This document shows positions 3,341 through 56,842 of a stretch of DNA of 64,000 nucleotides, piece by piece (the first letter of the stretch is position 1; every line of letters starts with the position of its first letter). A program made the translations under genes and the position numbers. This DNA comes from Tigriopus japonicus (Eukaryota > Arthropoda > Copepoda > Harpacticoida > Harpacticidae), in assembly GCA_010645155.1 (NCBI GenBank), contig CM021323.1, positions 8,802,892 through 8,866,891 on the forward strand, in the 5' to 3' direction. The notes below the pieces were generated by a model. It was not told the origin of the DNA and did no database searches. It saw only the letters and a list, made by a program, of their open reading frames with translations.

Positions 3341-3341
3341 A

Positions 3342-3583: not shown

Positions 3584-3599
3584 AATTCTAGAGCGTGAA

Positions 3600-4540
3600 A
3601 GGTCCTCTTGAGCTGCAATTGAAACCAAATCTACGTTCACTCTAATTTCGTCTGGAGGCGTTGGTTGCCATTGAAAAATAAATAAATTTGAAAGTGCCCT
3701 GATTTGTATTTCCGAAAATATTTGATTTTGGACCTGAAACATTGGTTGAATGGTGCTAGGTTCACTGAAGACGTGGATGCTTTGGTTTTAGTCGAAAGCC
3801 GTTTTTCGGAGTCAGGGCCAGTCACAGAAAAATATAATCAAATCAGTTGTTCGACTAGCTGTTCAAAGCTCACATGCTTGATTTCAACTGGATCGACAGA
3901 AATTTGTATCAGTAAAAGTAATTTGAAGCATATAGCAATTCGGGCTCGTCCGACCAACCAAGTGCTTCTACGATCTAAAAGAACCTCCTGAGAAAAAAGC
4001 GTCTCCGTCTCGTTGTAGGACTCTTTTGAAGCTTCGCGAAATAAGATGTGTTCATGCCCTGGCATGTATATTTTATCGGTTAAAGGCTCTTTTTGGCCGC
4101 ATTTTTTCTCTTGCACTTCTTGGTTCGTTTGGCTTTTTTAATGCTTCACTCATGTTAAAACCAATATTACTAGTGTTCTGATGACGCTTCTTTCCAATGA
4201 GCTTCTGTTCTACGATCATCCAGAAGCACGAAGTTAACCAAGTATTATCAACTCAAGTAAAATCTAAAATGTGTTTAGCCCCTTCAGTAGTTCAGAGTAT
4301 ATTCAGTTGTATATAAAGTAACAGTTCTGCCAACTTGTATTTTATAATAAAAGAAAACTTGAAACCTTTCAAAAGAAATAACCAAAGCTTTAAGAAAAAA
4401 ATTGAAAAGATCTTTTGATTCGGTTGTGATTTTTTACCCCTAGAAGAGATTCAAAAATATCTGGTCCATTAGCGAGTTTGGGAAAGGAATTTCAAAGGTC
4501 GTCCAACACTTCCTTCAATAACAAGACCAATTGAAAAGAG
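3600..4540. other. Intergenic, no gene recognised
   Basis: Overlapping short open frames of up to 95 codons on both strands (3704-3991 plus, 3838-4116 minus) show no motif that I recognise and no splice context. I see nothing else supportable. Confidence 0.4.
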
Positions 4541-38099: not shown

Positions 38100-38840
38100 T
38101 CGTGATACAAACGTATGTACACTGTACAACCGAGTTGAACTGATGGATAGTTGGATACAAGTTCGAGGAACTGCAGGAAGGAGCTGTCACTCCAGAGTGA
38201 TTTGAAGGCATGAACTTAATTTCACGTAGTTGTGGCTGTTTTTTAACATAAATTAGGAAGGCAATGAAATTTGTGTTCAATTTAGGGTCCATACCACCTT
38301 TGGCAGTCCTCTTTAGATTTAAGTTTCTGACCTGTCTGAAGCCTTTACTCAGACTTGACATTCCTATAACCTCCAACAACGGTGATTAAACATGCTCAAA
38401 ATGGCATGGCCTATATCTAATGTAATAGCAGATCACTTGTATTTGATTACTTCACGTCGACAACACACATATTTTGACCCAATGGCTTGGCTTTACGTCC
38501 ACTATTTCTGGCAAACCTGAAGTTAGCTGTCGTGTCAGCGTTTATGTTGCATGCTAGTGACTCCGACTAACGTCCATATTGTTTGTTCTTGGTTATATTT
38601 ATGTTTCCCATCAGTACTTACTACACCACAGAGTACTACACAGTCACCGCATCTGCTGCTCCAATGATTTGAATCTCAATTTGCCATCCAAACTCTTTGC
38701 CCTTGAGAGGGTGATTTGTTCCACGCCATTCGTGCCCATCTCCTCCTTCTCCTCGTCGCTCTTCGTGAATGAACTCTTTCTCTCACTCTTAAGAGGGCTC
38801 TGCTTATCCACTCTTCCACCCTCCATTATCAAATCTCGTC
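38100..38840. other. Upstream region of the three-finger BED gene
   Basis: No gene recognised. The last 200 bases become richer in C and T and should contain the leader of the gene that starts at 38841. Confidence 0.4.
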
Positions 38841-41492
38841 ATGTTGCGCACGAATCGCTCGTTGGTGTGGAACTATTTTCAAGCCCAGAGCAACGAGGCC
38901 GCTCAATGTAGCGTGTGTCTCAAGGTCATTCGTCGCACTCATTGCTCCACCTCCTCTATGAAATACCATCTCAATTCGGTTCACGGCCTCACGCTCGAAC
39001 CCTCGCCTTCCACGCCGCCCTCGATAGACGGCCAGTCACCCGCCCATGGCGATCTCGCGGATCTCCCCCTTCATACGCCCGATCATTGGCTACAAAACGA
39101 CCCGCTCGATGCGTCTCAAAGCACCGCGCCCAGTTCAACCGACCCAAACCCGTCGCAATTTAGGGGTGGGGAGTTGGTGGCCCGAAAATTGGAAAAGACT
39201 TGGAGCGGATCGCCCCCGGATAGTGGACCCGGAAGGGTCAATCGGTCCAAGGTTTGGGATCATTACGTGCCCCTGAATACGGAAGAAGCCATGTGCAAGT
39301 ATTGCCAAAAGATTATGATGCGTCGGAACGCCTCCACCTCGTCCATGAAGTACCACTTGCGTTCCAAGCATAAGATCAAATTCGATGGAACCACCGAGAG
39401 TGAAAATGGCGGTCAACCCCCGGTGATTGAGGGGATTAAATCGCCGGCCAGTGCCATGGCGACTCCGGCTGGACCCTCCCGTCGCTCGGCGATCCGATTA
39501 CCCGGGAAGGAGGAGGTTTTTGAGGATGAATCGAGTGTCAGTCAGGATGCGTCTTGGAATCCGGGTCAAACTCAAGCCCGTTTGCCGCGTCGGAATCGAT
39601 CCGAAGTGTGGGATCATTTCCACGTGCTCACCGAACACGCCGCCATTTGCGTCGTGTGTCAGAAAGTGGTGCGACGGATCAACTCCTCGGCCACGGGCAA
39701 TTTGCGTTATCATCTCCGGACTCAACACGACATTATCATTCAAGGTCGAAGTGGGCGGGATCGGGAGAGTGGTTTGCAGCGGAAGCGACAGCGTAATCAC
39801 TCATCCGACGACTTTGAAGTCGATGACGATGCGGATGAATCGCCGGAGGAAGACGATGAGGATCACGATGAGAAACCCGGTCCCGCTCGACAAGTTTTTT
39901 CGGGTCGTCGGGGTCCGGGTCGACCCCATAAGAACCAAGCTTACTTGGTTGAAGATCTGGTCGAGTCCATGATATCGGAGGAGAGTGTCGATGAAGTGTT
40001 GGCCAAACTCGTGGCCGTGGATGGGTTCACCATGCGCTCCTTGCTGAAAAGTGAATTCATGGCCGAGGCTTTGGCCGCCAAAAACATTCCCGTACCGGCC
40101 AATTTGACCCAATTTTCCGACCTTCTCATTGCGCACGCCCGTCAATTGTGCGAGAAAGCCGCGGACGAATTAGCCAATTTGGCCGATGGAGGTTTGCGAT
40201 TTAGCCTAACCTTGGATCACTGGCGGTCGTCCCATCACAAAAGTCGATCATCCCAGCTCTATACCAATGTCCGTTGTCATAGTACGGGTATGTCTTGGAG
40301 TTTGGGGATTGTTCCTCGGGAGAAAGCTTCCGAACCTTTGGCCTTGTCGGCTTTGAAGGCTCGCCTAACAGACTTTGGTCTGAATCCCCAGCGCGACATT
40401 GTGGGATCTACCTCACACGAACCTCTGCAATTGGGCGTGACGAATCAACGTTGTGTGGCTCATGGCATTCTTCAAGCCATAACGAGTGTGCTTTATACTC
40501 CGGATAATGACCTGTCGGATTCAGAAAAAAGTGATCTTGAGGAAGATTCATCTGACGAAGAGGAAGAAGAGAACGAAGAGCGTCCTCGACTAGTATTAGT
40601 GCCAAGCATTCGCTCCACTGTGAAACAACTCATCGAATCAAACGTGCTCCAAATCATCGAATCTGACGTCCAAACTTTCCCCACAGATGAACTCCAGCGA
40701 CCTTTAATCCTTGGTCCCCGCCTCAGATGGACCAAAGTTTTGACCACTTTCAATGCAATCTTATCCTCCCTCAAAAAGTCCGCCCAGCATGGGGATATTC
40801 TGTCCGAAACGGAAAGGCAAAACGTAGAGCACATCGTGAATACTCTCCAACCGCTTCACATGGGATTGGAATCATTCTGCGGCAAAGATGCCACATTACT
40901 CTCGGCTGAGGGAATCTATGTATTTATGCTTCGAGCCTTGAAGAAAGTGAACACTAGCCTTGCTGAACAATTACGATTAGCCGTCTTGGATTGTATCGCT
41001 GAACGTCGGCAAAATGATGTCGTGAGTTTGCTCAAGTATCTCAATAATCCGGAATCGCTCAAAGAAACGGTCCAGTTCTCGTTTCAAAAGATGCCATCTC
41101 GAGCCAACTTGGAACGCGTGGCTTTTCGGATGGGTAAGCAACTCTTTCCTGATACCTTCAAAGAAAGTGATGTGGAAGCAATTGGGGAAGAGGACATGGA
41201 TTTGAGTGCGGAATTGAATCGGTCCATAGCGGATGCCACGGCCTCGTCCAGACCGAGCAACCCATTTGTTCGAGATTTGATGGATTTGTTCGAGCTTACG
41301 GGAGAGTTGCCTCCGGCTTTGCAAGTTCTACGAGATGCTCTTTTGACGATACCGCCCACGTGTGTCCAATCTAATCGATGTCAACGAACGTTCTCGACCA
41401 AGTGTGGAACCAACCATTTTGGTTCGAAACTTCCCTTTAAGGTTTTGGATGCGCTCATTTTTCTCAAAGGGTATTATGATCAAAGAGAATAG
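38841..41492 (+). CDS. hAT transposase-derived protein with three BED fingers (cluster gene A)
   Basis: Intronless, 883 aa. BED fingers: C23/C26/H43/H48, C152/C155/H172/H177 and C270/C273/H291/H296, each led by a (V)W-(N/D)-(Y/H)-(F/Y) motif. An acidic stretch (323-345) and an AT-hook-like RRGPGRPHK (357-365) follow. The rest resembles a hAT transposase: LAKLVAVDGF entry segment, LTLDHW (D459 at the first catalytic position), QRCVAHGI for the CxxH helix, LRWTKV for the RW motif, LLKYLNNP for the LDPR segment, and IPPTCVQSNRCQRTFSTKCG before LDALIFLKGYYDQR for the dimerisation domain. At the second acidic position H526 replaces Asp, so a transposase function is unlikely. Probable nuclear DNA-binding protein. 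Tail to tail with gene B. Confidence 0.88.
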   Translation: MLRTNRSLVWNYFQAQSNEAAQCSVCLKVIRRTHCSTSSMKYHLNSVHGLTLEPSPSTPPSIDGQSPAHGDLADLPLHTPDHWLQNDPLDASQSTAPSSTDPNPSQFRGGELVARKLEKTWSGSPPDSGPGRVNRSKVWDHYVPLNTEEAMCKYCQKIMMRRNASTSSMKYHLRSKHKIKFDGTTESENGGQPPVIEGIKSPASAMATPAGPSRRSAIRLPGKEEVFEDESSVSQDASWNPGQTQARLPRRNRSEVWDHFHVLTEHAAICVVCQKVVRRINSSATGNLRYHLRTQHDIIIQGRSGRDRESGLQRKRQRNHSSDDFEVDDDADESPEEDDEDHDEKPGPARQVFSGRRGPGRPHKNQAYLVEDLVESMISEESVDEVLAKLVAVDGFTMRSLLKSEFMAEALAAKNIPVPANLTQFSDLLIAHARQLCEKAADELANLADGGLRFSLTLDHWRSSHHKSRSSQLYTNVRCHSTGMSWSLGIVPREKASEPLALSALKARLTDFGLNPQRDIVGSTSHEPLQLGVTNQRCVAHGILQAITSVLYTPDNDLSDSEKSDLEEDSSDEEEEENEERPRLVLVPSIRSTVKQLIESNVLQIIESDVQTFPTDELQRPLILGPRLRWTKVLTTFNAILSSLKKSAQHGDILSETERQNVEHIVNTLQPLHMGLESFCGKDATLLSAEGIYVFMLRALKKVNTSLAEQLRLAVLDCIAERRQNDVVSLLKYLNNPESLKETVQFSFQKMPSRANLERVAFRMGKQLFPDTFKESDVEAIGEEDMDLSAELNRSIADATASSRPSNPFVRDLMDLFELTGELPPALQVLRDALLTIPPTCVQSNRCQRTFSTKCGTNHFGSKLPFKVLDALIFLKGYYDQRE

Positions 41493-41613
41493 AAGAAATC
41501 CATGAGCATGTGTTGGCTTGAGGCTATGTGGTTTCTACATATGGTTAAAAGAGAATGAAATGTGCCCTCACAGTTAGCAAGCTCTAGTCGTTGCAAGCAG
41601 ATCATGTTTGATG

Positions 41614-41619
41614 AATAAA
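41614..41619 (+). terminator. Candidate poly(A) signal of BED gene A
   Basis: AATAAA about 122 bases after the stop codon. Confidence 0.5.
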
Positions 41620-42852
41620 TTCAACATGTCCTACAATTACCATTCCTGTGTCATTGCTTTTTGATCATTTGACCACTTGTGGACAATATCTTGAACAAAG
41701 GTGAAGAATCTGTAGGTCTTCAGCTAATAAGTCTTTTATAAAAAATACGAACCAAATTTTTCTTTATTCGCAAAAGTACTTATCTATATGCAAACCAAAT
41801 TTGATGACTTCGCGTGCTTAAGATAAATATGAATTTAATGATGTAATATATTTGATATTTTCCAGATATGAATATGTCTATAAGACATATTCTACATTTG
41901 TCTACATTGTCTACATGACATCCTATATGAATTGAGGATGAAATTGAAACATTTTCGCACTTATGAATGTGAGCAAAAGAGCATAGAATGAATTTGGGAA
42001 CGCCAACTTTCAATGGAATTGTTGGATCGCAACAACTTGTTTAGGACCCTTTTATATTAATTCCACACCACAATTGCCATCCTTGGTGATTGTCCTCCTC
42101 TTTTTCGATGTAATTCGTTTCAAAGCTTTTATAAACCAGTTCATCTTGACCTTCAACCTAATGAGGCATTGCCGTTGTAAGAATTTGAAGTACCCTTTTA
42201 AAAACTTGGGTCCCTTCCAAAAATGCTCACGCAGGAAGCATTTAAATTCTTTTTTCAATTCACCTGAGGCTTGAGAAATGCCAGGTTTCGTGAACACGAA
42301 CACAGAAGATTCCCGATGAAGCTACCGCATACTCTTTCCGGAAGAAAACCATGTCTTCATTGTCTTCCGTGTAGGTCACGTTGAAGCCCGCCCAACCCAC
42401 ACGCGAATGTTATACAGTTATAAAGTACACACCGGACATCTCGCATCTCGCAGTGGTACGAATAGTACCACTTCCATAGCTAGTTCTTTGTAGTTATTTT
42501 TATGCACTAATGCCGTTCTTAGATTTTCAGACGCACTCATTAATTCCCTTCGCATAGACGATGGTGAATAAAAAAGTATTTTTCTTCTACGCAGTGAAGA
42601 AACTGACAAATTCTGTCACCCGTTCATCAGCCATGTATTTATTCTTGTTGAAATCAAAGCGTCTGGACCTGACGCACGGTGCGATGCTTGAGAGAGATGG
42701 AAAAGATATATATTCACATGTGCTTTATGTGGATGATGCGTTTTGATTGCGTTGATATGAGCTTGCTCCATCCCTCCATCTTGGAGGGTCAAAGCTATTT
42801 TTAATGATACTTGAGTCGCATTCACAGAAGAAAGTTTTTTTGGCGCATCGAT

Positions 42853-42858
42853 TTTATT
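42853..42858 (-). terminator. Candidate poly(A) signal of BED gene B
   Basis: TTTATT on the plus strand, AATAAA on the minus strand, about 54 bases after the stop codon of gene B. Confidence 0.5.
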
Positions 42859-42911
42859 CGTTTTGAAGTCTTAACTCTTGCCAGTAAGATGACCTAAGAG
42901 ATTTAGCCTGT

Positions 42912-45900
42912 TTAGCTCCGTTGATCATAAAAGCCCTTCAGGAAAATGAGAGCGTCTTCCAGCAATGAGAAGTGCCCTTTATCAAACGGATGGAAAACGG
43001 AGGCAATCTTGCAATTGGGAGAGCACTGGCTAGATTGTCGACAAGTCGGAGAGATTGTATTCAGAGCTCGTTGAAGATTCTTCAGATCAGACGACAGGCA
43101 TTCTGTGGTCTCGAAGTGGCTCATCCCTTCGGCAATGACCTCGATTCGGGTCATTTGAGCCTTTGACGATTCCTTGGACTTTACCTCGCTTGAACTTGGA
43201 AACAAGCGACGGGAGAAGAGACCAATGTCTCTTTGTAACGTGTCTCTGCTCACTTGATTGCTCGCTAATACTTGTTTGGGATGGTTGAAATACTGCAGAA
43301 GCGCCACAATGTCGTGTCTCTGCCTTTGGGTTGTTTTGTCTTGAATCAATTGTCTCAGAAGCTCCGAGTAATCGGAGGGCGTTTTTTCTAGCTCTCCCAA
43401 CAACTGGTTGATCACTTTATCCGCTGACAAGAGATCGATGTCTTTGGAGTTGAGCGACGTCAATCCGGCAAATATCAAGCCAAGATGATGTCCCAAGATG
43501 ATCAGTTGCTTCCAATCACTCTCTGGCAAAAACAAATGGTCTTGAAGCGAGATTTGGACGTCAAGGAGGGCCTTGACTTGTTCCAGAAGTTCCTCCCAAT
43601 CGTTGGTTGGGTCAAAGGTCGCCACTTTATCCAGTTGATACCGTTGTTGCATGGTGACGATCGCGGGTTCGGCCTTGAAAATCTCAATGACTTGCGTTTG
43701 GGCTCGGACGATAATCTCAGTTATCTCCGGGATGAGCTCTAAGGTACTCCAGTTTGATGCGCCGCCAAAAAACGACGAATTAGTCTTTTTCTTCTTGTCT
43801 TCTAGTGCCTGTTTCTGTGGCGAAAGGGGTTGATAGAACACTTCTCGAATAGCCTCATGAATCCCTCGTGCCAAACAGATTTGCTCTTCCACACTCTCAA
43901 GGAATGGTGAGTCCGTGGTACAGGCCACGATATCACGCTCAAATTCAAGCCCGAATCGGGACACTTTCTTCTTGACAGCTTCACGGATTGAGTCCGATGT
44001 GTGGGATTGGATATCACGGATGAGACCCAGACTCCAGGACAATCCCTGGCTGTAACAATTCACTGCCAGATGGACCCCGCCTGATTCGGTTGACCAAACA
44101 TCAAGGGTCAAACTGAATCTCAAGTCGATCTTGGCCATGTGCATGAGTTCTTGGGCGGCTTTGGCTTTTAATTCGTCGGCATGATCGATGAGCATGACCA
44201 CGAGATCGTCAGTAGAGGTGGGCATGATCAGGGAATTGGCCGAACAGGCCTCATTGATATAAGCGCTTTTGAGCACGCCATTGACGGGGAAACCATCGAC
44301 ACTGATGAGCTTGGCCAAGAGCTCGGTGGCACTTTCGTTCTGATCCATTTCGGAGAACTTCAGAGGTCGGCCTTTCACCGGATTGGTGGGCACCAAATTT
44401 CCGGGATTGTTCTCACTGGATGAATTGGCTCGACTCAAGTTAATGTCATGTATACGGGTGAGATGGCGAATGAGCGCCGAGGTCGAGGACCCTTTGATGG
44501 CTAGGGTTCTCAGACAGAGAGTGCATTTGGCCAGTCCACTGCCCAAGGATTCGCAATAATCCCACACCAGAGACCTACCACTTGAATCTAAAGGCTGATT
44601 TGTCTTCGGAGACGCAGTTCTTCTCATTTTGGAGGCCGATGTTTGCGTGCCATTCCACGATCTCTTGTTGTTGGTCATTCGAAACTCATCCTCGAAGGAT
44701 TCCGGGATTGAGTCTTCTTCAAGTTCTTCAAACACGCCTGACCAGATGTCTTCCGGTTCAGCCTCGGGTTCGATGCGTTCGCTCACTAAGAAAACCACTT
44801 TCGACTTATCATCACCTTTCTCGATATTGTGCCGGGCTTTCAAATGGCGTTTCAAGCTGGTGGTGGAAGAATTAACGATTCGCATGCCTTTGTTGCACAC
44901 TCGACAAGTGGCATAGCCCTCGTGAGAAGGCAGAAAGTAGTCCCAAACGAACGACTTGAGCGGTTTCATGTCTTCTTCTTCTTCTTCCTCCACATGTTCG
45001 GCTGGCACTGAATAGGATAGTGGATGGTCATCGGAGGCTTGAACCACGGGGAGTAACAGTTCCTCCGTTTTGACTTCCTGAAGGGGTTTGTAGTACTCAT
45101 AATCGGGATGTTGGGATCGCAAATGTTTCAACAAGGCAGACGTACATCCACCCACTCGGCTCAAGATCTTGTGACAAAGTTGGCAAACGGCTTTGTCATC
45201 GGGCAAATCTTCAAAAAAATCCCACGCGCGTGATCGTTGGGCAGTCCGACACGCCTTGGGCAAAGTGGACTCCTTCTTGACCGGCTTGTCCGTCAAGTCT
45301 TCGTCATTCTCCTCCGGATCCCGTTTTCCGCCTCCCATGGATTCATCGTCATCATCGCTGGGAACGACCTCAAATTCATCGAATTTGTGCTTCCGTCGTA
45401 AATGCCGGAGCAACGTGGACGTGGAACCGCCCGTGCGTTTAAAGATCTTGTCGCATTGCTTACACTGAGCTTGGGAGGGTGAGAGCTCATCAAAGTGATG
45501 CCACACCACGGACTTTTGCGTCGATCGACCGTTGGTGGGTAAAGGCTCGCCGTGCTTATCGATGTCGTGCTTCATTCGCAAATGCTTGATCAGGCCCGCG
45601 GTCGAGCCTCCGGTGTGTCCCAAGACCTTGGGACATAATCGGCATTGGGTCTGTCCATCGGACAACGCTTGAAAGTGCTCCCAAAGCGCGGCATCGGACT
45701 CTTCCGTCTCGGAACCGGCCCCGGTTTGGTTCGGATCCGCGGGACTGGCGGCCGCTTTCGGCGTGGCCAATTCGATCTCGTGCTGTCGACGCAGATGTCG
45801 GATCATATTGGACGTGGATCCGGTGGCTCGTTTGAGAACCTTGTCGCACAACCGACAGCGGGTCTTATCCTCGGAAATTTTGTCAAAGTGCTTCCAAACC

Positions 45901-46670
45901 GAGGACGCGCCCGTGAAATCGACACCGGAGCCCGCCGCCTCCTTTACGGCCCGGGTTTGACGCCCACCCGCTCCGTTTTCTAGCGCGTGTTTGGTGCGTA
46001 AATGCGTAATGAGTGACGAGGTGGATCCGCCTCGACGGGCCAAAACCTTGGAGCACAATTTACAACGGGCTCGCGCTTCGGGTAAAACGTCAAAGTAAGA
46101 CCAGGTCCAGGATTGTTGATTGTGGCCCGCGGGTTGGTCGTCGTGGGTCCCGGGGGAGGGACGGTCCCGGTCGTGCGGATCAGAAGAGGGGTGGACGGTG
46201 AAGGGGAGGGGCACGGGTTCGGAGGCTTGGTCCGGCGGCAGATTGTTGACGTCGATTTGGTGTTTGTTCTTGAGGTGTTTGGTGAGCGAGGACGTGGACG
46301 AGCCTCGACAATTGAGGATGGTCTGGCAGAGGTTGCAGATCGAGGCCTCTCGGGTGAGTTTGAGACAGTAGTTCCACACCCGAGAGCGACCGGGTCGCGG
46401 GAACGCCGCCTCCTCAGGCTCGGGCTCCGCCCCCGCTTCTTCACTTTCTTCCTCTTCATGCAGTAAATTTAGTTGTTGCAGTTGTTGTTGTTGTTGTTGG
46501 TCGTCGCCGTGCTGGACGATGTGCTCCAGCGTGGCCTCATCCACGATGACCGTGGTCTTCATGGTGTCGTCTTCGTCGTCGTCGTCCTCGTGGCCATCTG
46601 GGTGGAGGTCGTTGTGCGTGGGCAGGACCAGGGTGTGGCTGACGTCCTCGGGCACCACTTCCACGCTCAT
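42912..46670 (-). CDS. hAT transposase-derived protein with eight BED fingers (cluster gene B)
   Basis: Intronless, 1252 aa from ATG 46670; the frame is open further upstream but only from TTG. An acidic, poly-Gln N terminus (58-67) leads into eight BED fingers with first cysteines at 112, 203, 272, 343, 403, 496, 589 and 716. All have C-x2-C-x16-H-x4-H spacing. Fingers 2-6 are closely alike (a GGSTS/TGSTS-type loop then a HLR helix), so they arose by internal duplication. The C-terminal part (about 783-1252) matches gene A: LAKLISVDGF, LTLDVW (D857), VACTTDSP (D920), QICLARGIHEA, LLSADKV, NHPKQV and LEDALIFLKGFYDQRS. It is the only one of the four that keeps both of these aspartates. Probable nuclear DNA-binding role; partners unknown. 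Confidence 0.88.
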   Translation of the reverse strand: MSVEVVPEDVSHTLVLPTHNDLHPDGHEDDDDEDDTMKTTVIVDEATLEHIVQHGDDQQQQQQLQQLNLLHEEEESEEAGAEPEPEEAAFPRPGRSRVWNYCLKLTREASICNLCQTILNCRGSSTSSLTKHLKNKHQIDVNNLPPDQASEPVPLPFTVHPSSDPHDRDRPSPGTHDDQPAGHNQQSWTWSYFDVLPEARARCKLCSKVLARRGGSTSSLITHLRTKHALENGAGGRQTRAVKEAAGSGVDFTGASSVWKHFDKISEDKTRCRLCDKVLKRATGSTSNMIRHLRRQHEIELATPKAAASPADPNQTGAGSETEESDAALWEHFQALSDGQTQCRLCPKVLGHTGGSTAGLIKHLRMKHDIDKHGEPLPTNGRSTQKSVVWHHFDELSPSQAQCKQCDKIFKRTGGSTSTLLRHLRRKHKFDEFEVVPSDDDDESMGGGKRDPEENDEDLTDKPVKKESTLPKACRTAQRSRAWDFFEDLPDDKAVCQLCHKILSRVGGCTSALLKHLRSQHPDYEYYKPLQEVKTEELLLPVVQASDDHPLSYSVPAEHVEEEEEEDMKPLKSFVWDYFLPSHEGYATCRVCNKGMRIVNSSTTSLKRHLKARHNIEKGDDKSKVVFLVSERIEPEAEPEDIWSGVFEELEEDSIPESFEDEFRMTNNKRSWNGTQTSASKMRRTASPKTNQPLDSSGRSLVWDYCESLGSGLAKCTLCLRTLAIKGSSTSALIRHLTRIHDINLSRANSSSENNPGNLVPTNPVKGRPLKFSEMDQNESATELLAKLISVDGFPVNGVLKSAYINEACSANSLIMPTSTDDLVVMLIDHADELKAKAAQELMHMAKIDLRFSLTLDVWSTESGGVHLAVNCYSQGLSWSLGLIRDIQSHTSDSIREAVKKKVSRFGLEFERDIVACTTDSPFLESVEEQICLARGIHEAIREVFYQPLSPQKQALEDKKKKTNSSFFGGASNWSTLELIPEITEIIVRAQTQVIEIFKAEPAIVTMQQRYQLDKVATFDPTNDWEELLEQVKALLDVQISLQDHLFLPESDWKQLIILGHHLGLIFAGLTSLNSKDIDLLSADKVINQLLGELEKTPSDYSELLRQLIQDKTTQRQRHDIVALLQYFNHPKQVLASNQVSRDTLQRDIGLFSRRLFPSSSEVKSKESSKAQMTRIEVIAEGMSHFETTECLSSDLKNLQRALNTISPTCRQSSQCSPNCKIASVFHPFDKGHFSLLEDALIFLKGFYDQRS

Positions 46671-48083
46671 GATGATTGATAATAACAATAACAACGACTG
46701 ACTGAGTTAACGCTCAACAGCGTTGCCAAAAGGTTTCAAGTTCACGCTGCCAAAGGGTTGAATCCTGCTATTTTGGAAATCCCATGCTATCATATTCCGC
46801 CACGTTTGAACCCACATCTTCTCGTTATTAGCTTATGTCTCGTTTCACTTTTTAGGGCGGACATTTTCATTCTCGTTTTGCTTTGATTATATTTTGGGTT
46901 TTCATCCCAAAGCCAAAAAGTGGCGGTGAAAACTTTCTTCTGACATGGCTAGATAGAGCCGAGCACCGCTCAGCGCGGACTCGATGTTCAGCTGACGGGT
47001 CCCCCAAAAACGCCACGCCCTCTCCCGCCCCTTGAAACATTAACCGGAACTAAAGACTGTCATTTTTATCAATACAACTTTTACGCGGTCCGGCTTAGAG
47101 CCTGGCACCGCCCTTGTTTTTATTTGGAGCGCTAGAACTCGAGGACGGGAAATCACTCCTGTCAAACGCAAGATTTTGATGTTAAAATCGCACAACCTTT
47201 GGTCATTCTGCGATAAAACCGATAAGAAGTCAAAGCCATTCAAAGTTGGGGAATACTTTAAAATTTTGTAATATGCGGTTAATGTTTCAAGTTTCGATTT
47301 TGAATACGGTCCTTCAAGGAAGCGTAAATTGGAAAATGAATCTGTTAGACATATTTATTTGCAATTTCGGCTGAACATACAGCGTAGTGTGCTCCAAACG
47401 GTACTTATGAATATGTTTTCCCAAAATCTTGTGCATTTTAAGTGAGATTTTGTATTGTTTTGAGCTATTTTGATATGAACTTCAAAACTCAAAAACATCA
47501 TTTTCTCTCGCGACATTGAAAAGCTATATAAAATCTTTGGAAATTTCTTTTCTAATTAACATTACCTTTTCGGCTTTCTTTTCGGGGTCAAAATTGACCA
47601 TTCAAACCCAGATAAGTTAGCTGCTGATTAATGTCTTTTTATGCAATCTGAATTTAACGGATAACTGAATGGTCTCTATATTGATCAGAAATGTTATAAT
47701 TAAAAGGCTTTTAGGTAAATAATTTTTTCCTTGGACCTTAACTTATATATAATACAATAAGAGTGAAATTGTTTCCCATTGAATTGTAGGTCCAAAATGT
47801 GCCATGATGTCTTTGGGTACTTTGATCCCAACCTAAAAAGCCATTCGAAACACTGTCTTTCCTAAAATCATTTAAATAATTTCACCCATTTCGTTCGTCT
47901 CCTTCTTCGATATGATTCGATTTTTTTCTTTATTCGTCGAAACTTAGCCTAAGTTCAAAATGCACGGGCAAAACTGAAATAAAAATTAAAACGAGGTCAA
48001 ATAACTTAACTGGCTATGTAATTGTATTGATCAACATTTCTCAAGTTATTGATGCTGCGGGAAAACGTTGCGCGAGGTCATCC
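46671..48083. other. Upstream region of BED gene B and 3' flank of BED gene C
   Basis: No gene recognised. Both neighbours are on the minus strand, so this stretch holds the gene B promoter and the gene C 3' end. Confidence 0.4.
47929..47934 (-). terminator. Candidate poly(A) signal of BED gene C
   Basis: TTTATT on the plus strand gives AATAAA on the minus strand, about 150 bases past the stop codon. Confidence 0.45.
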
Positions 48084-49943
48084 TCAGCCTCGTTGATCAT
48101 AGTAACCCTTCAGGAAGATGAGAGCGTCTAAGAGTCGGGCGGGATGGCCAGAACCGAAATGCTCGAACCCGCTCTGATTACTGCCCGGCACACACCGCCG
48201 CATTTGCATGCACGTCGGTGTCAAAGTGGACAGGGCCTGTTGAATTAGTTGAAGGCCTTCACAGATCTGTCCACTGTTATCCAGTGTGTTCATTTGCTCT
48301 CGCATGGTCTTACTCAGCGACTCTGAGTACGTGGCCATATCGATGGAGCGTTGAAGTTCCGTGGACAAGTCTGAACTTGGCTCGGCGGAGTCTAGCGATG
48401 TGGCGTCCGAGTCTTGGAGCTCTTTGTCGTCGTAATGCTCGGGGAAAAGTCGACAACCTAGTCGGAAAGCCGTCCGTTCCAAGACCGAACGATTGGGCAT
48501 CCGTTGGAACGGGAACTTTTCGACCTGTCGGAGGGATCGCGGGTTGTTTAAATACTTGAGGAGACTCACTAGTTCGTGTTGCCTTCGTTGCGTTACATTG
48601 TCCTTGATCGCTTGTCGGAGAGGTTCTACCAAAGGACCTTTGAGTTTCTCCAAGGCCAGCAACATGAAGACGCACACCCCTTCAGCCGAGAGAAGCGTCG
48701 AGTCCTTGGAGTACAACGCATCCAAGCCCATTTGCAAAGGACGTAAAAGCTCGACCAAGCTGGCCAAAGCATCCCAATCGTCTTCCGAGAGCGCGAAACT
48801 TTCACCTAAAAGCTCTTTGAGGCGTAATAAGCTCTCGATTTTGCTCAGCAAACCTAACCAAGGGGTGTGGGCGCTCAAGAGCCCAGCTTGGTCCAAACCT
48901 TGTTCGACCACCAGGTCGATCTGACAATCGGGTTGCATAAATGCTTTGATAGCGGTCTGGACCCGGCCAATCAGTTGGCGGATGACCGGAACCAAGATCG
49001 GGCCTTCTTCCGCCATATCGGCCTCGTCAATTAACGGCGAAGCTCCGGGTGAATCATCGGGCGCCGCCTCTTCTTCATCTTCTTTTTCACGCGACACACG
49101 GTAGAGCACTTTGAGCACGGCTTGGTGAATGCCGTGGGCCAGACACAACTGCGGGTGGGATGCCCCGAGGGATATTTGATCGGTGGTGGCACCCACGATA
49201 TCCCGCTCGGCATTCAGACCGAACTGTCCAATTTTCCGCTGAACGGCGCTCCAGATGGCGGACGCCTTCATCTCGGGATGAATGCGAATCATGCCTAAAC
49301 TGTAGGACATGCCACCGTGACCGTGACAATTGACGCCAAAATATCGCGCGCCCGCCGCCGATTGCCATTCACTTAAAGACAAACTAAACTTCATATGAAT
49401 TCGGGCCAAATCGGCCAACTCTTCCATGGCCTTGCTCCGGAGATGATCGGCGTGTTTGAGCAGAATCAAGGCCAACTCATCGGGATGATTGGGCAGAGTC
49501 AAGGCCTTGGCGGCCAAGACCTCGCGGACAAAATCGCTGCGGATCACGGAACTCAAAGGGAAATCATCGACCGTGACCAGTTTAGCCAGGATGACCTCGA
49601 CGCCTTCATGGTCCTCTGCCACCTCGATGAACTCTTGAGTAGACGAGATCAACACGCCCTGACTGAGTTGCGACGCCACGGCGTGTGGGCGTGCCCGTCG
49701 TTTTGGGGCTGGACTGGACCGAGGACTGATTCCGACGCCGCCCTCGATCGGCGAACGGCTCCGATGAAATCCCGCCCGTTTCTTTTCCTCAACGATTTCG
49801 TGTTTGGTACGGAGATGGTTGCTGAGGGCCGACGTGGACGAGTGCGTCCGTCGAAGCACCTTCATGCAGAGCTTGCAGGCCGCCGATTCCGGGTCCAAGT
49901 TCTCGAAGTAGTCCCACACGAACGAGCGGTTCGAGCGACTCAT
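48084..49943 (-). CDS. hAT transposase-derived protein with one BED finger (cluster gene C)
   Basis: Intronless, 619 aa, the shortest member. It starts MSRSNRSFVWDYFENL, close to the N terminus of gene A, with one BED finger (C23/C26/H43/H48) whose RRTHSSTSAL loop also resembles gene A's first finger. A Ser/Pro/Arg-rich linker (52-105) follows. The shared C-terminal region has LAKLVTVDDF, LSLSEW (Ser191 in place of the first aspartate), GATTDQ (D255 kept), QLCLAHGIHQA, YSKDSTLLSAEGV, LKYLNNPRSL, LTPTCMQ and LLDALIFLKGYYDQRG. Its single-finger layout may be closest to the founder of the family, since ordinary hAT transposases carry one BED finger. Divergent from gene D. Confidence 0.88.
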   Translation of the reverse strand: MSRSNRSFVWDYFENLDPESAACKLCMKVLRRTHSSTSALSNHLRTKHEIVEEKKRAGFHRSRSPIEGGVGISPRSSPAPKRRARPHAVASQLSQGVLISSTQEFIEVAEDHEGVEVILAKLVTVDDFPLSSVIRSDFVREVLAAKALTLPNHPDELALILLKHADHLRSKAMEELADLARIHMKFSLSLSEWQSAAGARYFGVNCHGHGGMSYSLGMIRIHPEMKASAIWSAVQRKIGQFGLNAERDIVGATTDQISLGASHPQLCLAHGIHQAVLKVLYRVSREKEDEEEAAPDDSPGASPLIDEADMAEEGPILVPVIRQLIGRVQTAIKAFMQPDCQIDLVVEQGLDQAGLLSAHTPWLGLLSKIESLLRLKELLGESFALSEDDWDALASLVELLRPLQMGLDALYSKDSTLLSAEGVCVFMLLALEKLKGPLVEPLRQAIKDNVTQRRQHELVSLLKYLNNPRSLRQVEKFPFQRMPNRSVLERTAFRLGCRLFPEHYDDKELQDSDATSLDSAEPSSDLSTELQRSIDMATYSESLSKTMREQMNTLDNSGQICEGLQLIQQALSTLTPTCMQMRRCVPGSNQSGFEHFGSGHPARLLDALIFLKGYYDQRG

Positions 49944-50870
49944 CTCGATCGATCAATGGATGGATGGATGGACGGACACCAGCACAGACTGTTGCGGCTC
50001 CAGAGCTTCTTTAGACTAGACTCTGCTTTAGACTAACGTAGTAAGTAAGTAAATAAACAACGGTTCAGAGCAGATCAGTGTGCCTGGAAGCCGCGTTTGT
50101 AGTACTGATCATAGAGGTCTATAGAGAGGCCATTGTCGTCATTTTGTCTGCCTTGTTTATTGCTAAAACTGGCCAGAAGTTGCGTGAAAAGGCAAATGTT
50201 TCTGAAGAATATTGTGAATTACTTGCCCAAACAAGTGGAAGATCATAGTAGTGATGTGACTTGGGCGCTTGGGCAAGCTTTTTTTCGTGACATCGTACAC
50301 TGGGGTCGCCAATTTTCCTTTAGTGAAATGGTATTCCCCTCTGCCTACCTCTCTTCATAAACCGGTTTTTCATTAAGAATCACTGAAACGTGCCCCTGAC
50401 TTTTGTAACTTTGGATCAGGGTTGCAAATTAACCTCATATTTGTGTTTGCTTCAGTTAGTTAGCAAAGCACAAAATCTCCATTAGGTGACCCTCCCTTGC
50501 CACCTCCCGTGAAAAAACTTGCCCAAGCCCAAATTTCCCATCACTAGTAGACAGGAGGCCACATGGCCAAAAAACTAATACTTTTCAAAAATGTGCCTTC
50601 TACAAATATGTTTGTTTGGGCAAGTTTTAACTAGTCGCTGATGATAAATGGCCTTTGCTGCCCACAATGAATTTTCACGACTGGCCTGCTCCAGTATCTC
50701 CACTCTGGGACCTCTGTGTTTCCAACAAATCAGGGGGGAAATATTTTTCAAAAGGCATTCTCAATTTTCTAATGGTTCTTTATGATTTTGTATTTTAGTC
50801 TTTTTGCTGTGATGTTAATGAATTGTGACTTTAAACATTTTTCAAATTGCCAAAAGCAAATTGTGCTTTC
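49944..50870. other. Upstream region of BED gene C
   Basis: No gene recognised. ACTTGCCCAAACAA (about 50220) and its inverse TTGTTTGGGCAAGT (about 50612-50626) could be the ends of a 400-base mini-element, but the match is short and no duplication is visible. Confidence 0.35.
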
Positions 50871-51526
50871 CACTAATGAGAGGTGCAGGGGGAGGTTTGA
50901 GTGATCTCTTCAAAAATCTTATCGCGGGCGGATGAAAGAAGAGAAAAGGCTTGTTTTTCAACATAAGATTTTGGTCAGTGCAAGGGTTTTCGCGTTTACA
51001 GACCGCCCTTATGACTTAGATGCTACAAAAAATGTCGAATTGCAAGTTTAAACATTTTGACTCTCGGTTTTGTAAGAATATGCAAAATTATTCTTTTGAC
51101 TAAAAAATGGCAAGCACATAAAAAAGACCTTTGATATTGAAGAGAAATACCTACAAAATACGGCATTTTGTTTGGTACCTTGATGGTTTTGGAGTTTTAC
51201 AATACAAATCAGTGCTTTTAACATCACTTACACTTGTACTTACCCAAAAAAGTGGCCTTTTGTTGAGAATTTTCTCGTGCAAGAATGAGCAAATAAAGTG
51301 TGCATATTTTTCCAAAATCCTAACCAAAGGTGTTCAAACTTGCAATTCGACATTTTTCATGGCATCTAAGTCATAAGGGCGGTCCATAAATTGCGAAAAC
51401 CCTTAAACTGACCAAATTCTCACGAGCCACCCACTGTTGCCAAACAAGCCTTTTCTCTTCTTTCATCCGCCCGCGATAAGATTTTTGAAGAGATCACTCA
51501 AACCTCCCACTGCATTTCTCATTGGA
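50871..51526. mobile_element. Long inverted-repeat element between BED genes C and D
   Basis: Arms of about 180-190 bases (50871-51049 and 51336-51526) are strong reverse complements. GTTTGAGTGATCTCTTCAAA on the left is mirrored by TTTGAAGAGATCACTCAAAC on the right, and AAATCTTATCGCGGGCGGAT by ATCCGCCCGCGATAAGATTT. The outer borders are CACTAATGAG and, inverted, CCAATGAGAA. About 285 bases lie between. No protein is encoded. It sits in the shared upstream region of two divergent BED genes. Confidence 0.75.
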
Positions 51527-51604
51527 TTCAATGAATTGAAGTGAATCTTTTGAAGTTCAATTTACCATTTGTTGTGCTTTTTTCAGATGTACACGAGGTC
51601 GACT

Positions 51605-51835
51605 TTTCCTGTGGGCTGAGCTGTTTACAGGGTTGAGTTGTCCATTGGGTTGAGTTGTCTACACGGTTGAGTTGTCCATTGGGTTGAGTTGTCCATTGGG
51701 TTGAGTTGTCCATTGGGTTGAGTTGTCCATTGGGTCGGGTTGTCTGTTAGGTCGAGCTGTTTGTTGGGTCGAGTTGTCCGCTGGGTTGAGATGTCCTGGG
51801 TTGAGTTGTCTGTTGGGTCGTGTCGTAATCGGAAT
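51605..51835. repeat. 17-bp minisatellite
   Basis: Tandem copies of TTGAGTTGTCCATTGGG, exact in the middle (about 51660-51735) and drifting outward (GTCGAGTTGTC, GTCTGTTGGGTCG). About a dozen units in all. One frame gives a repeating Asn-Ser-Thr-Gln-Trp-Thr-type peptide, which is a by-product of the repeat and not evidence for a gene. Confidence 0.8.
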
Positions 51836-52472
51836 GCACGGAAAAGGAGTCAGCAATAGATCTACTTATCTACAAGGCGAGTAATTTTATTTATATATGT
51901 ACTGAAATCCCTAGCTGAAACCGGTTTATTAGATGCCAAACCCGACTTTGGCTCCAAAGGCTGACCAGGCCCTCCGCGGGCGGCTGCTTCAGGAATAAGA
52001 AAAACCTCGCTGTGTAGGTAAGTAGACCTCCCGGGTCGAGTTGTCCTGGAACCCCCATCAGATCAGGTGAGAACCATGAGATATGCTATCATCTTTAGAT
52101 CCTTTTTCTTTGCTCAAAAATGGACAGGTTCTTCACTTATTGCAATAAGATCATTGTTGGTGGTTTGTCGTTCTCAATCCCAGTGCAATGGAAATGCTCA
52201 CCCATTTCATTTTCGTAAATTCCATGGTTTAGCTAGTTGAACTTATGGGCTGGTATTTTTATTTCCCCGAGCCATCCGGTCACACTGATGCAAATACCCA
52301 AACAACAACAAAGCCGCAGTTGATCGATCTCCCTCTTTGGGAAGGATCAATCATAGCTACTCGATTATCTTCGCCAACGCGGGTTCTCTCTCGATTCCAT
52401 CCCGTTGAACTCGGTGTGCTGTGTTTTGTGGCTATGCGGTGAGCTTGATCCCCCGAGCTTCACATCTGAACC
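51836..52472. other. Upstream region of BED gene D
   Basis: No gene recognised. It carries the 5' flank of gene D. Confidence 0.4.
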
Positions 52473-55400
52473 ATGTTAAGTTGGGTGTGGGAATTTTGTC
52501 GGCGTTTGCCGGGAAGGCCGCAGGCCGAGTGCAAATTATGCTCGCGAATCTTCGCGGTGGGCGATTCCGGATCCACCACCACCCTCATCCGACATCTCTC
52601 CTCGCAACACAACATTGAACGAGGCTCCGTCAGGCCAGGGGCGATCATCGGCGAACAGCCCCCCGACCAACCACCCCCCTCTCCATCCCCGCCCCCGTTC
52701 GCATCCCAAGAATGGGTTTGGAAACATTTTCAATCTTTGACGCCGGAAGCGGCCATTTGCCAAATTTGTCAGGACATTCTTCAAGAATCCCCGCGATTAA
52801 ACGAGGCCACCTTGAGCGAGCACTTATCAGCGGAACATCATATGAAGCCCGAGCCAAATTCGCCCATTTCACCCAAAGCGATGTCTTCGCCCGAGCCAAG
52901 TCCGATTCCGCCTTCTCCGAATGTCAAAACTATCATCCTTCAACGCCAACCCACAATCATTGCTTTGTCCGAAGGATTAACCGCCAAAACCTCGCCGGTT
53001 TGGCAATATTTTGATGCATTGCCCAACATGAGAGTGCGATGTAAGAAATGCGATTCCATCTTGCATCAACCGAATCGAGGAACGACGTCCATGATACGGC
53101 ATTTGGCCGGCGTCCACGCCATTAATTTGGGCACCAAGTCCGCACAATCCGTGTTGGCGCGCCCGTGTAAACCAATAGCAGCGGGTCGAGGCAACGTATG
53201 GGAATACTTTGACGCCATGCAAGAGGGACGAGCGCAATGTCAATTGTGCTATATCAAGGTCGCCGCACCTCGAGGCTCCGATCAAAGTGCTCTAGCGGCC
53301 CATTTAAGGGACAGGCACAAGATTGAACCTCAAGCTTTACATGGTATTTCCCCTGAGCCCGTGTCTCCCAAACCCGAAATTACCCCGGCCGCGATCGGGA
53401 TCTGGGATTCCGAAGAAGAGTCCCATCCACCCGAGGATGACCCGGAGTTTGAGCCCAATCTCCAAGAACTTAGCGATTCGGACCAGGATCCCTTTCCGGA
53501 CAACGATCTCTCCATGAGCTCCAATTTGCGCTCGGAGGTGTGGAAGTATTGCCTTCATCTGACGTCTCGCGTGGCCCAATGCCGATTGTGTCAGAAGATA
53601 TTTCGCACGCCCAATGGCAGCACCACCAGTCTAGCCCGACATTTGGAACATGCCCATGCCATTAGTGTTACGCTAGTGGTCCAGGCCAAACGAAAAACGA
53701 ACTACAAAAATAAGAAGCTGAACCCAAATAGGCCTGATAAAAAAGAAGAAGAAGCCATGGACAGCCATGAGCCCGACCAAGCTGAACCTCCAAAAAGCTC
53801 AACCACCACCGACGAACATCACTATGCCAAATCCAAGTCTTCGGCGGACTCGGCCATGACTCCAATTGAGAAAACCTCTTCACCTCGGAATCACCGATCT
53901 TCGGTCTGGAGTCATTTCAAGGCTGTTGGATCCCATTCTGCCATCTGTACCATATGCAACCGGCTCTACCGTACCCCCAATGGCTCAACCACATCCCTTC
54001 ATCGACATATAGAGAGACATGGCATCTTTGGGAGCGTCAATAATGGCCAATCCGTCGAAGATATCGAAGCCATTAATGAGCGTGTTGAGAAGCTCGAAGA
54101 AGGCAACATGCACGGCCGATCTTGGACTAGACGGTATTTCGAGAGCATTAGCAAAACTGTATCCCGATGCCTCAAGTGTGACCGACTGTATAAAACACCT
54201 AATGGCTCCACCACCACTTTGGCCAGACATTTACAAACTTTTCATGGGTTGTCTCCAAACGAAACAGACGAGAAACCAATGCCTTCCATGCCTCGCATGA
54301 AAAAACCGCGAATGGGTTTGCCCTGGGAAGACGTGGACGACGACGAAGAAGGTGATCAAGAAGAGCAGGGAGATGAGGACGATGACAACATGAATGATGA
54401 TGACAACCCCCTTCGGCTCGACAATGAGAACATTGCTGAGAAAGATTTCAATTTTGATGATGACGATGAGGATCAAGATGAATTAGAGCTAAAGGAAAGA
54501 CGGTCGTGGGTATGGAAACATGCTAAGCCAAGTAATTCAGGTAGTTCTCGTTGTCGCATCTGTCACAAGGCCTTCCGGACGAAAAATGGCACTACGACCT
54601 CCTTGGCTCGACATTTGGTCAACTATCACGGCCTTTGTCCGGCAAGCCCGTCGGTTTTGCTTTCCCAAAACAATTCAAAAGAGCTTAACGACCTTTGTGC
54701 CAAAGATGGAAGTTTGCCGGAATCACAGCGGAAAAGGAAACGCCACCCACGCTTACGGTCGTTTTTGAGGGACTTCTATGAATCGATCAGCGACGTGATA
54801 TCCGTTTGCAAATTGTGTCAGACCAGACTACGAACCTCAACCAGTACTCTGAGTCAGCATCTCATCAGAAAACATGACATCGATTGCCATAAAGAGTTGT
54901 CAATGGATGAAATGCCCAATACCTACGATGGAAATGACGTCAATCAAGACAAAGGCAATGAAAGTGTCGTTGCTCCTAGCTCCTCCATCCGTGAAAGCGT
55001 GGAAGAGATCTTGGCCAAGTTGGTGGCGGTCGATGAATTTCCCATGGCTACTTTGCTCAAAAGTGACTACATCAATGAGACCTTGGCCCAAAAGAAGCTC
55101 GCCATGCCCGCCACGTGCCAAGATTTGGAGAACATGTTTATCAAACACGTGGAGCACCTGAAAATCAAGGTCGGCGAAGAGCTCTCAAGTATGACAGACA
55201 TGGACTACAAGTTCAGTCTGACTTTGTATGAATGGAAGACTGAAGAAACTAATATTCATATCGAAATTACATGTCATGGCCACAACATGTCTTGGAATAT
55301 GGGGATTGTCCACGAAATGCCTCTCATGACCGATTCCATGATCATGGAAGCTGTGAAGAACTTGGTTCAAGACTTTGGATTGAATTTCCATCGCGATATT

Positions 55401-56324
55401 GTGGCCTGCACTACAAACGGATTGGAAACTCTGGGGATGGAGCATCAAAAGTGTCTCGATCAAGGTATTAGAGAGGTCGTTTCGAGCGTGCTTTTTGAGA
55501 GGAAAGCCAATCAAAATCTGATTTCGGAAGTTCGTGACGTCTTAAACAAATTAAAGACCAATTCGACCCAGAGCAACAACAATCAGTTCATCAATCAACG
55601 TGCATTGGAGCAAATTCTGTCCCAAGAACCTCAAAATGAAATTGTCCAAAGAAGTTGGCTCAAAGTCCTGGAGTTCATTGAAAGTGTCTTGAAACCCGAA
55701 GTAGAATCCAGAATGAAACGCCTTCTACCTGAAAAAGACTTGACCTATTTGAAGAACTTGTTCCTAATTCTCGACACCATTCGGATTGGGTTACAAGCAT
55801 TAGAGTCCAGTGATGTGAACCTATTGTTAGCCGACAATATCGTGGTTGAAATGTTGGAGAAATTGGAGCAGGTATCGATTGACCTCTCACAAACACTACA
55901 AGACACTCTCTCTACGGCGATGGAGCAATTGCGAAGTCATGACATTGTCAGTGTCATCAAGTACATCAGTAATCCGAAAACCCTCCTCGACTCGGCTGAG
56001 CAAAAGTATGCTTTCCTGAAAATGTCTTCCCGTGAGATCTTGGAGCGGGATATTCTACGCTTTGAGAATCGCCTTTTCCGTAATCTTCACAAGGACAAGT
56101 TTCCTTGCATCAATCGGATCTCCCAAGAGATGGAGGACTTCGAAAACTCGGGATTCCTGTCGTCAGATCTAAAGACGCTTCGTCAAGCATTGGTCACGAT
56201 ATCGCCCACGTGTCGTCATCGAGGTCATCCCCAGCAACAACGACCACAGTTAAACCACACACCCTCGACTCAATTGGAAGATGCCTTGGCCTTCTTGAAA
56301 GGCTATTATGATCAAAGAAATTAA
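52473..56324 (+). CDS. hAT transposase-derived protein with nine BED fingers (cluster gene D)
   Basis: Intronless, 1283 aa, the largest member. Nine BED-type fingers have first cysteines at 20, 96, 190, 256, 370, 492, 566, 694 and 779. Fingers 5-8 share a (T/K)-(P/K)-NG-(S/T)-TT-(S/T)-L loop and look like recent internal duplicates. Finger 6 has H-x3-H instead of H-x4-H, and finger 9 has a shortened loop. A very acidic stretch lies at 620-672. The shared C-terminal region starts near 842: LAKLVAVDEF, LTLYEW (Tyr919 at the first catalytic position), VACTTNGL (Asn982 at the second), QKCLDQGI, KYISNPKTLL, ISPTCRH and LEDALAFLKGYYDQRN. Both aspartates are lost, so it cannot be a working hAT transposase. 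Divergent from gene C. Confidence 0.88.
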   Translation: MLSWVWEFCRRLPGRPQAECKLCSRIFAVGDSGSTTTLIRHLSSQHNIERGSVRPGAIIGEQPPDQPPPSPSPPPFASQEWVWKHFQSLTPEAAICQICQDILQESPRLNEATLSEHLSAEHHMKPEPNSPISPKAMSSPEPSPIPPSPNVKTIILQRQPTIIALSEGLTAKTSPVWQYFDALPNMRVRCKKCDSILHQPNRGTTSMIRHLAGVHAINLGTKSAQSVLARPCKPIAAGRGNVWEYFDAMQEGRAQCQLCYIKVAAPRGSDQSALAAHLRDRHKIEPQALHGISPEPVSPKPEITPAAIGIWDSEEESHPPEDDPEFEPNLQELSDSDQDPFPDNDLSMSSNLRSEVWKYCLHLTSRVAQCRLCQKIFRTPNGSTTSLARHLEHAHAISVTLVVQAKRKTNYKNKKLNPNRPDKKEEEAMDSHEPDQAEPPKSSTTTDEHHYAKSKSSADSAMTPIEKTSSPRNHRSSVWSHFKAVGSHSAICTICNRLYRTPNGSTTSLHRHIERHGIFGSVNNGQSVEDIEAINERVEKLEEGNMHGRSWTRRYFESISKTVSRCLKCDRLYKTPNGSTTTLARHLQTFHGLSPNETDEKPMPSMPRMKKPRMGLPWEDVDDDEEGDQEEQGDEDDDNMNDDDNPLRLDNENIAEKDFNFDDDDEDQDELELKERRSWVWKHAKPSNSGSSRCRICHKAFRTKNGTTTSLARHLVNYHGLCPASPSVLLSQNNSKELNDLCAKDGSLPESQRKRKRHPRLRSFLRDFYESISDVISVCKLCQTRLRTSTSTLSQHLIRKHDIDCHKELSMDEMPNTYDGNDVNQDKGNESVVAPSSSIRESVEEILAKLVAVDEFPMATLLKSDYINETLAQKKLAMPATCQDLENMFIKHVEHLKIKVGEELSSMTDMDYKFSLTLYEWKTEETNIHIEITCHGHNMSWNMGIVHEMPLMTDSMIMEAVKNLVQDFGLNFHRDIVACTTNGLETLGMEHQKCLDQGIREVVSSVLFERKANQNLISEVRDVLNKLKTNSTQSNNNQFINQRALEQILSQEPQNEIVQRSWLKVLEFIESVLKPEVESRMKRLLPEKDLTYLKNLFLILDTIRIGLQALESSDVNLLLADNIVVEMLEKLEQVSIDLSQTLQDTLSTAMEQLRSHDIVSVIKYISNPKTLLDSAEQKYAFLKMSSREILERDILRFENRLFRNLHKDKFPCINRISQEMEDFENSGFLSSDLKTLRQALVTISPTCRHRGHPQQQRPQLNHTPSTQLEDALAFLKGYYDQRN

Positions 56325-56842
56325 TCTGAATACGCTACTCACAAAATATGATCTCAAGCCTTGTAAGTTCATGGTCTGCTTTTCTGGTTCTGCAAGATAT
56401 GTAATAGTTTTCACGTATGGCCAATGGTTTAGCCATCGGGAATCAAGCAATGGGAGCGAAACACATCAAGACATTTTTAGGACGTACCAATGTAGAAACC
56501 CAATTTGAGTAACTTGAACAAGTCTTTGAACAGCAAATGAGTTAAACGTTGGAAAGTTTTGATATAAATCATATTCAAATTTAAAAATCTCACTAAACTT
56601 ACTTTTCAATCTCTCAATTAAACGCAGGAGAGAATCGTAATCCTGTGTTGAAAGATATTTCATATTCAATTTGCTTTTGATTTGCTTTTGCAAATTCGCA
56701 ATTTGCTTTTGCGACCTCACTCAAAAAAACTCTGAGCGTGTTGTTTTCTTTCAAGAAACTTCGGTTTAAACGTCAATAATTGCATTTAAGAGGTATTTTA
56801 ACATGCCCTTGAAAATGAATAGCTTTGAAAGATGTTCTAGAG

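What the first reader, a model, noticed from the sequence alone, without database searches (positions are those of the whole stretch)
38841..56324. Cluster of four intronless hAT-derived genes with 3, 8, 1 and 9 BED fingers
Seen: four long open frames (883, 1252, 619, 1283 codons) in 17.5 kb share a C-terminal region with the same motif order (LAKL-VD-F, LTL--W, RDIV, LLKYLNNP-type segment, I/L-S/P-PTC) and the same last residues (ALxFLKG-Y/F-YDQR). Known: one BED finger, an RNase H-like core and a C-terminal dimerisation motif are the layout of hAT transposases and ZBED proteins. Inferred: a domesticated transposase became a locally amplified family whose finger number varies nine-fold while the dimerisation end is held constant. 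That would give modular DNA readers of very different reach. I know of no described family with this exact design.
Basis: partly seen in the sequence, partly recalled or inferred. Interest (0 to 1): 0.88.

Follow-up and report, generated by a model that had tools for sequence, protein, structure and literature searches.

The report
Domesticated transposase genes with multiplied fingers
A small copepod carries a cluster of genes made long ago from a jumping gene's enzyme; they have lost the cutting residues but kept its body and multiplied its DNA-gripping fingers up to nine per protein, and a relative of the parent jumping gene still sits in the same genome.

Summary
Four uninterrupted frames (883, 1252, 619, 1283 codons from the first Met) carry 3, 8, 1 and 9 BED fingers and share a C-terminal core of 442-506 residues. 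The hAT reading is right, although Pfam shows only fingers. Foldseek with an AlphaFold model gives Hermes transposase alone at E <= 0.001. G1 aligns (BLASTP 8e-27) with a hAT element of the same genome that has terminal inverted repeats, exact 8-bp target duplications and D-D-E. All seven family proteins compared lack the third acidic residue. They form one clade: one domestication, then duplication. Two have Tigriopus californicus orthologues with the same finger number. A second nine-finger copy shows purifying selection (dN/dS fingers 0.27, core 0.30, linkers 0.54) and probable gene conversion. The design is known from vertebrate ZBED4 and ZBED6 (four and two fingers). New here are an independent copepod family, arrays as long as the Hermes octamer supplies in trans, and a relative of the parent transposon alongside. 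Targets, oligomerisation and expression are untested.

The parts
38841..41492 (+). G1: 883-aa protein, 3 BED fingers plus hAT-derived core (core from about 39984)
   Evidence: AATAAA 122 bases after the stop
42912..46670 (-). G2: 1252-aa protein, 8 BED fingers plus hAT-derived core; orthologue TCAL_03918 (P0009) in T. californicus also has 8
48084..49943 (-). G3: 619-aa protein, 1 BED finger plus hAT-derived core; orthologue LOC131888961 (P0006) in T. californicus, 1 finger
   Evidence: structure model
52473..56324 (+). G4: 1283-aa protein, 9 BED fingers plus hAT-derived core
52413..56480 (+). unit shared with the duplicate G4b on the same contig (L018:2614-6685, minus strand, about 3.6 Mb away); similarity stops shortly outside the coding frame on both sides

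Best explanation
A single domestication of a hAT transposase, before the split from the T. californicus lineage, gave a host gene that was duplicated locally into at least four genes lying on both strands, plus a later copy of G4 elsewhere on the contig. The catalytic D-D-E triad decayed (shown by alignment). The hAT body was kept (shown by fold and sequence). The BED finger, one in the transposase, was multiplied within each gene inside one open frame, and the array was then held fixed (8=8 and 1=1 between species, shown for two genes). Most likely mechanism (inferred): nuclear DNA-binding regulators. The C-terminal core pairs or multimerises the protein as in Hermes, and several fingers on one chain bind clustered or spaced sites cooperatively. 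Hermes forms an octamer to gather enough BED fingers; these proteins carry eight or nine on one chain.
Confidence: 0.7

Rival explanations
1. Host defence: the family are dominant-negative descendants of the transposase that bind the subterminal repeats of the parental hAT lineage (GATTAA/TTAATC arrays) and block its transposase.
For: A related element persists in only two copies found by DNA search (counts are lower bounds). Its ends hold 18 half-motifs in 240 bases against 1 in the inner 1983. Inactive transposases with fingers kept are a natural repressor design (inference).
Against: The fingers are far from the element's finger in the tree (long branch), and conservation between species (61-98%) suggests fixed targets, not an arms race. 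Exact sites of the 19-base end motif number only 8 genome-wide, two of them in the element copies. No binding data.
Confidence: 0.2
2. The frames are still transposons, or recently dead copies, rather than host genes.
For: Clear homology of three of the four to a hAT element of the same genome; clustering of four copies. Weak matches to its TIR (2 of 11 bases off) do lie on both sides of G3 and of G4.
Against: The third acidic residue of the triad is lost in 7 of 7 family proteins compared. Of the five such TIR-like pairings within 15 kb, none has an 8-bp duplication (6-8 of 8 bases differ). Orthologues with the same finger number exist in another species. The four frames are intact though their cores are only 30-41% identical.
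Confidence: 0.03
3. Structural or chromatin role: the long arrays serve as boundary or insulator proteins rather than gene-specific regulators.
For: The BED finger is named after Boundary Element-Associated Factor and DREF (abstract start of PMC7761493). Long arrays with variable linkers could bridge distant sites (inference).
Against: No direct evidence; not separable from the main explanation by sequence.
Confidence: 0.15

Closest known systems
Vertebrate ZBED4, ZBED6 and ZBEDX (Ac-family hAT domestications; PMC3606216, results part 1 of 2)
   Same: hAT-derived genes whose BED fingers were multiplied after domestication (4, 2 and 2)
   Different: Named relatives of the core found here are from Tigriopus only (capped searches). 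Up to nine fingers, four genes side by side, third triad residue lost in all seven proteins compared. A shared origin with vertebrate ZBEDs was not tested
Hermes hAT transposase (PMC10368747, passages; PDB 8sjd, 4d1q)
   Same: Fold of the C-terminal core; BED fingers for DNA binding
   Different: Hermes has one finger per chain and reaches eight through an octamer; its triad is active (recalled)
The hAT element of this genome (C12:8555190-8557412 and C30:1173530-1175676)
   Same: tblastn matches to G1, G2 and G3 in both directions, none to G4 at E <= 1e-3
   Different: Mobile-element ends with target duplications, one finger, D-D-E
SLEEPER genes of flowering plants (search listing and abstract start of PMC3499209 only)
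   Same: Transposase-derived hAT host gene family
   Different: Plant lineage; finger expansion not mentioned in what I saw

Membership tests
hAT-superfamily-derived protein | hAT fold (RNase H core with helical insertion) | tested here: met
hAT-superfamily-derived protein | sequence homology to a hAT transposase | tested here: met
   E 8e-27 for G1 and profile probability 99.8 for the four cores against the L022 frame, which matches Dimer_Tnp_hAT; G4 alone gives no tblastn match
hAT-superfamily-derived protein | direct match to curated hAT models | tested here: not met
   none in 4 of 4 proteins at E <= 1
Active hAT transposase/transposon | complete D-D-E triad | tested here: not met
   third residue replaced in 7 of 7; first or second also in G1, G3, G4, G4b, Tc3
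Active hAT transposase/transposon | TIRs with 8-bp target duplication | tested here: inconclusive
   only the TIR of the related element was scanned for, up to 2 mismatches in 11; five pairings around G3 or G4, none with a duplication
ZBED-type domesticated gene | BED finger(s) plus hAT core, host gene under constraint | tested here: met
ZBED-type domesticated gene | expression and regulatory function | not testable with these tools
   no RNA-seq or binding data held
Vertebrate ZBED clades | common domestication event with vertebrate ZBEDs | not tested
   no vertebrate ZBED sequences were put in the tree

The most novel reading that the evidence does not exclude
The family turned a trans-assembled reader into a cis-encoded one: after losing catalysis, it put into one chain the eight or so BED fingers that a hAT transposase must gather by forming an octamer, and uses them to read phased arrays of sites descended from the parental transposon's subterminal repeats, as a genome-wide regulatory or repressive network.
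Probability: 0.15. Interest if true: 0.75.

Novelty: new variant of a known kind. Interest (0 to 1): 0.5.

Why it matters
It is a ZBED-like case outside vertebrates, with longer arrays than the 4, 2 and 2 fingers reported for ZBED4, ZBED6 and ZBEDX in the section read. A hAT element of the same lineage with recognisable ends, target duplications and D-D-E lies in the same small genome, beside a series of finger numbers (1, 3, 8, 9) on one conserved core, in a genus used in the laboratory. That lets one test directly how finger number changes DNA affinity and target length in a transposase-derived protein, and whether such proteins restrain their parent transposon.

Tried and rejected
Pfam alone and the PDB profile search would have rejected the hAT reading; the fold search and the in-genome element overturned that. 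An Ac-like hAT of the genome (L011) gave no significant profile match (probability 0.4), so the relation runs to one hAT lineage. A search for the element's end motif in the window gave 5 one-mismatch sites where 1.75 are expected, with 4 of 100 shuffles reaching it: weak, and not used. The 8-BED frame on C8 (L017) was tested for a hAT core in the 9 kb held and has none at E <= 1e-3. Six of the eight genomic sites of the 19-base motif are not copies of the element; two of the six hold short stretches resembling its C-terminus. Three of the six were fetched with wider flanks, and tblastn gave one short hit in one of the three. Retrocopy versus DNA duplication of G4 was left open: no poly(A) tail or long shared flank was seen. 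Papers on either T. californicus gene id: none found. ZBED with copepod: two papers, listing and abstract starts only, each holding ZBED once. A survey of transposon-derived factors across animals (PMC10027918, passages only) holds neither 'copepod', 'Tigriopus' nor 'crustacea' in its main text. VIA-align shows BED fingers of ZBED1-3 but no ZBED hAT core in its rows, which is not evidence either way.

Full report
What is there. Four stop-free frames of 899, 1264, 622 and 1284 codons lie at 38793-41492 (+), 42912-46706 (-), 48084-49952 (-) and 52470-56324 (+). From the first Met they are 883, 1252, 619 and 1283 codons. Pfam gives BED fingers in 3, 8, 1 and 9 stretches and no hAT model. The last 442-506 residues of all four align, with 30-41% identity between genes. 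Each gene has an AATAAA or ATTAAA within 300 bases of the stop. The genome is a eukaryote of 194.9 Mb in 158 contigs. The nearest named proteins are from the copepod Tigriopus californicus, so the window comes from a Tigriopus or a close relative; no call names the species (a genome of about 195 Mb would suit T. japonicus, from recall).

The sequence link. Among the hAT-model and BED hits of the same genome (loci looked at), one frame (L022, minus strand 2326-4128, 601 aa, contig C12) aligns with G1 over 645 columns (BLASTP E 8e-27, 23% identity) and with the profile of the four cores over 481 columns (probability 99.8, E 3.6e-29). By tblastn G1, G2 and G3 match it in both directions (E about 1e-20 or better), G4 in neither at E <= 1e-3; G4 belongs through its likeness to the other cores (30-34% identity, E 1.5e-59 or better). 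The frame matches Dimer_Tnp_hAT above its curated cut-off (25.6 against 21.4 bits). It lies in an element of 2223 bp (C12:8555190-8557412) with ends TAGGGCATAAGC / TAGGACATAAG and an exact 8-bp duplication (CCTATGAA); a second copy of 2147 bp on C30 has its own exact duplication (GTGTTTGG). A DNA search with the coding part finds only these two loci, at 99%; over the whole element the two aligned pieces are 98.3 and 95.4% identical. Neither copy shows one frame from finger to end: that of C12 opens inside the finger (Pfam positions 17-44, 19.7 bits, just under the cut-off) and that of C30, which has the full finger, is split in two. The motif GATTAA/TTAATC occurs 18 times in the terminal 240 bases and once in the inner 1983: subterminal repeats, which in Hermes are what BED fingers bind (PMC10368747, passages). 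An Ac-like hAT of the same genome does not match significantly.

Domestication. In the alignment of seven family proteins (G1-G4, the duplicate G4b, and T. californicus Tc2 and Tc3) with the element and three other hATs of the genome, the element has D, D and E. The family reads G1 D/H/N, G2 D/D/S, G3 S/D/R, G4 and G4b Y/N/G, Tc2 D/D/N, Tc3 S/D/R. The third acidic residue is missing in 7 of 7; the place of the triad rests on the usual hAT motifs (recalled) and this alignment. The Cys and the Gly-Ile of the C-x-A-H-G region and a Trp of the helical part are invariant in the four cores. The seven form one clade (100/99; drawn open inside), with (G3,Tc3), (G2,Tc2) and (G4,G4b) at 100/100; the tree has four outside hAT rows and long branches. 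One domestication followed by duplications before the species split is the simplest reading. Matches to the element's TIR with 2 mismatches in 11 can be paired around G3 or G4 in five ways within 15 kb, but the 8-bp flanks differ at 6-8 of 8 bases.

Finger arrays. Tc2 has 8 fingers and Tc3 one, like G2 and G3; both T. californicus proteins are listed with a contig of 16,296,148 bases. Orthologues of G1 and G4 did not appear in the three protein searches, each of which scored only about 8000 candidates. In the finger tree (48 rows, 45 columns, 12 of 44 branches starred) 6 of 8 G2 fingers pair with their Tc2 counterpart (five starred, one at 96/73), while fingers 3 and 5 are unresolved; the three G1 fingers group together (93/79), and G4 fingers 5-8 form a block with their G4b copies (88/88). 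So arrays grew inside genes, and G2's was in place before the split. A BED frame on contig C8 (751 aa, 8 fingers, L017) has no hAT core in the 9 kb held.

Constraint. G2 against Tc2: fingers 61-93% identical, core 69%, linkers 41%; G3 against Tc3: 98%, 75% and 54%. Near-identical proteins of an unnamed organism (P0005, P0007, P0008; source tag lgn) differ from the window's G1-G3 at 1 of 493 finger positions, 9 of 1481 core positions and 17 of 780 others. G4 has a second copy, G4b, about 3.6 Mb away on the same contig (1319 aa, no stop). Over 1280 aligned codons dS is 0.152, dN 0.061 and dN/dS 0.40 (one-sided Fisher p 5e-13); fingers 0.27, linkers 0.54, core 0.30. dS falls from 0.37 at the N-terminus to 0.014 at the C-terminus (heterogeneity p 4e-7), which points to gene conversion of the core. 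Similarity between the two copies spans window 52413-56480 only, of the 10 kb and 9 kb compared. This is a paralogue pair; orthologue dN/dS could not be computed because no T. californicus DNA was at hand.

How it probably works. Shown: the hAT body is recognisable, the triad is lost, and the fingers are multiplied and conserved. Inferred: the core still pairs or multimerises the protein, and the fingers bind DNA. Hermes forms an octamer to bring together enough BED fingers, three of which bind each left end. A protein with eight or nine fingers in one chain would not need that, or would reach sixteen or more as a dimer. Whether the targets are promoters, boundaries or the ends of the parent transposon cannot be told from sequence; the first is most likely by analogy with ZBED proteins.

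What is known. ZBED4, ZBED6 and ZBEDX have four, two and two fingers, gained by duplication after domestication in vertebrates (PMC3606216, results section part 1 of 2). Recombinant Zbed4 is reported to bind DNA in a sequence-specific way (title, abstract start and passages of PMC3365051). A survey of transposon-derived factors across animals counts 71 ZBED genes (PMC10027918, passages). Nine literature searches listed no description of this family; they cover open-licence PMC papers only, and most hits were seen as listings. The find is therefore a new variant of a known kind.

Noticed in passing
L022 (element at C12:8555190-8557412); L025:1031-3177 (C30:1173530-1175676): Two closely similar copies of a hAT element with exact 8-bp target duplications; one holds a 601-codon open frame, so the lineage was probably mobile recently.
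   Followed up: yes
L018:2614-6685: Second copy of the nine-finger gene on the same contig in the other orientation, with a steep fall of synonymous divergence towards the C-terminus (probable gene conversion).
   Followed up: yes
L017:3774-6029 (C8:4246273-4248528): 751-codon frame of eight BED fingers with no hAT core nearby: possibly a family member that lost the core.
   Followed up: partly
L031, L032, L033, L034, L035, L037: Six more sites of the exact 19-base end motif CGATTAATCGCGATTAATC with mutually similar flanks: a second, degenerate repeat family sharing the subterminal motif.
   Followed up: partly
L023:501-2234 (C12:9197500-9199233): 578-codon frame with a hAT dimerisation match and no BED match: perhaps another domesticated hAT gene.
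   Followed up: no
window 21751-22506 (-): 252-codon frame matching linker histone H1/H5 (72.8 bits, three stretches).
   Followed up: no
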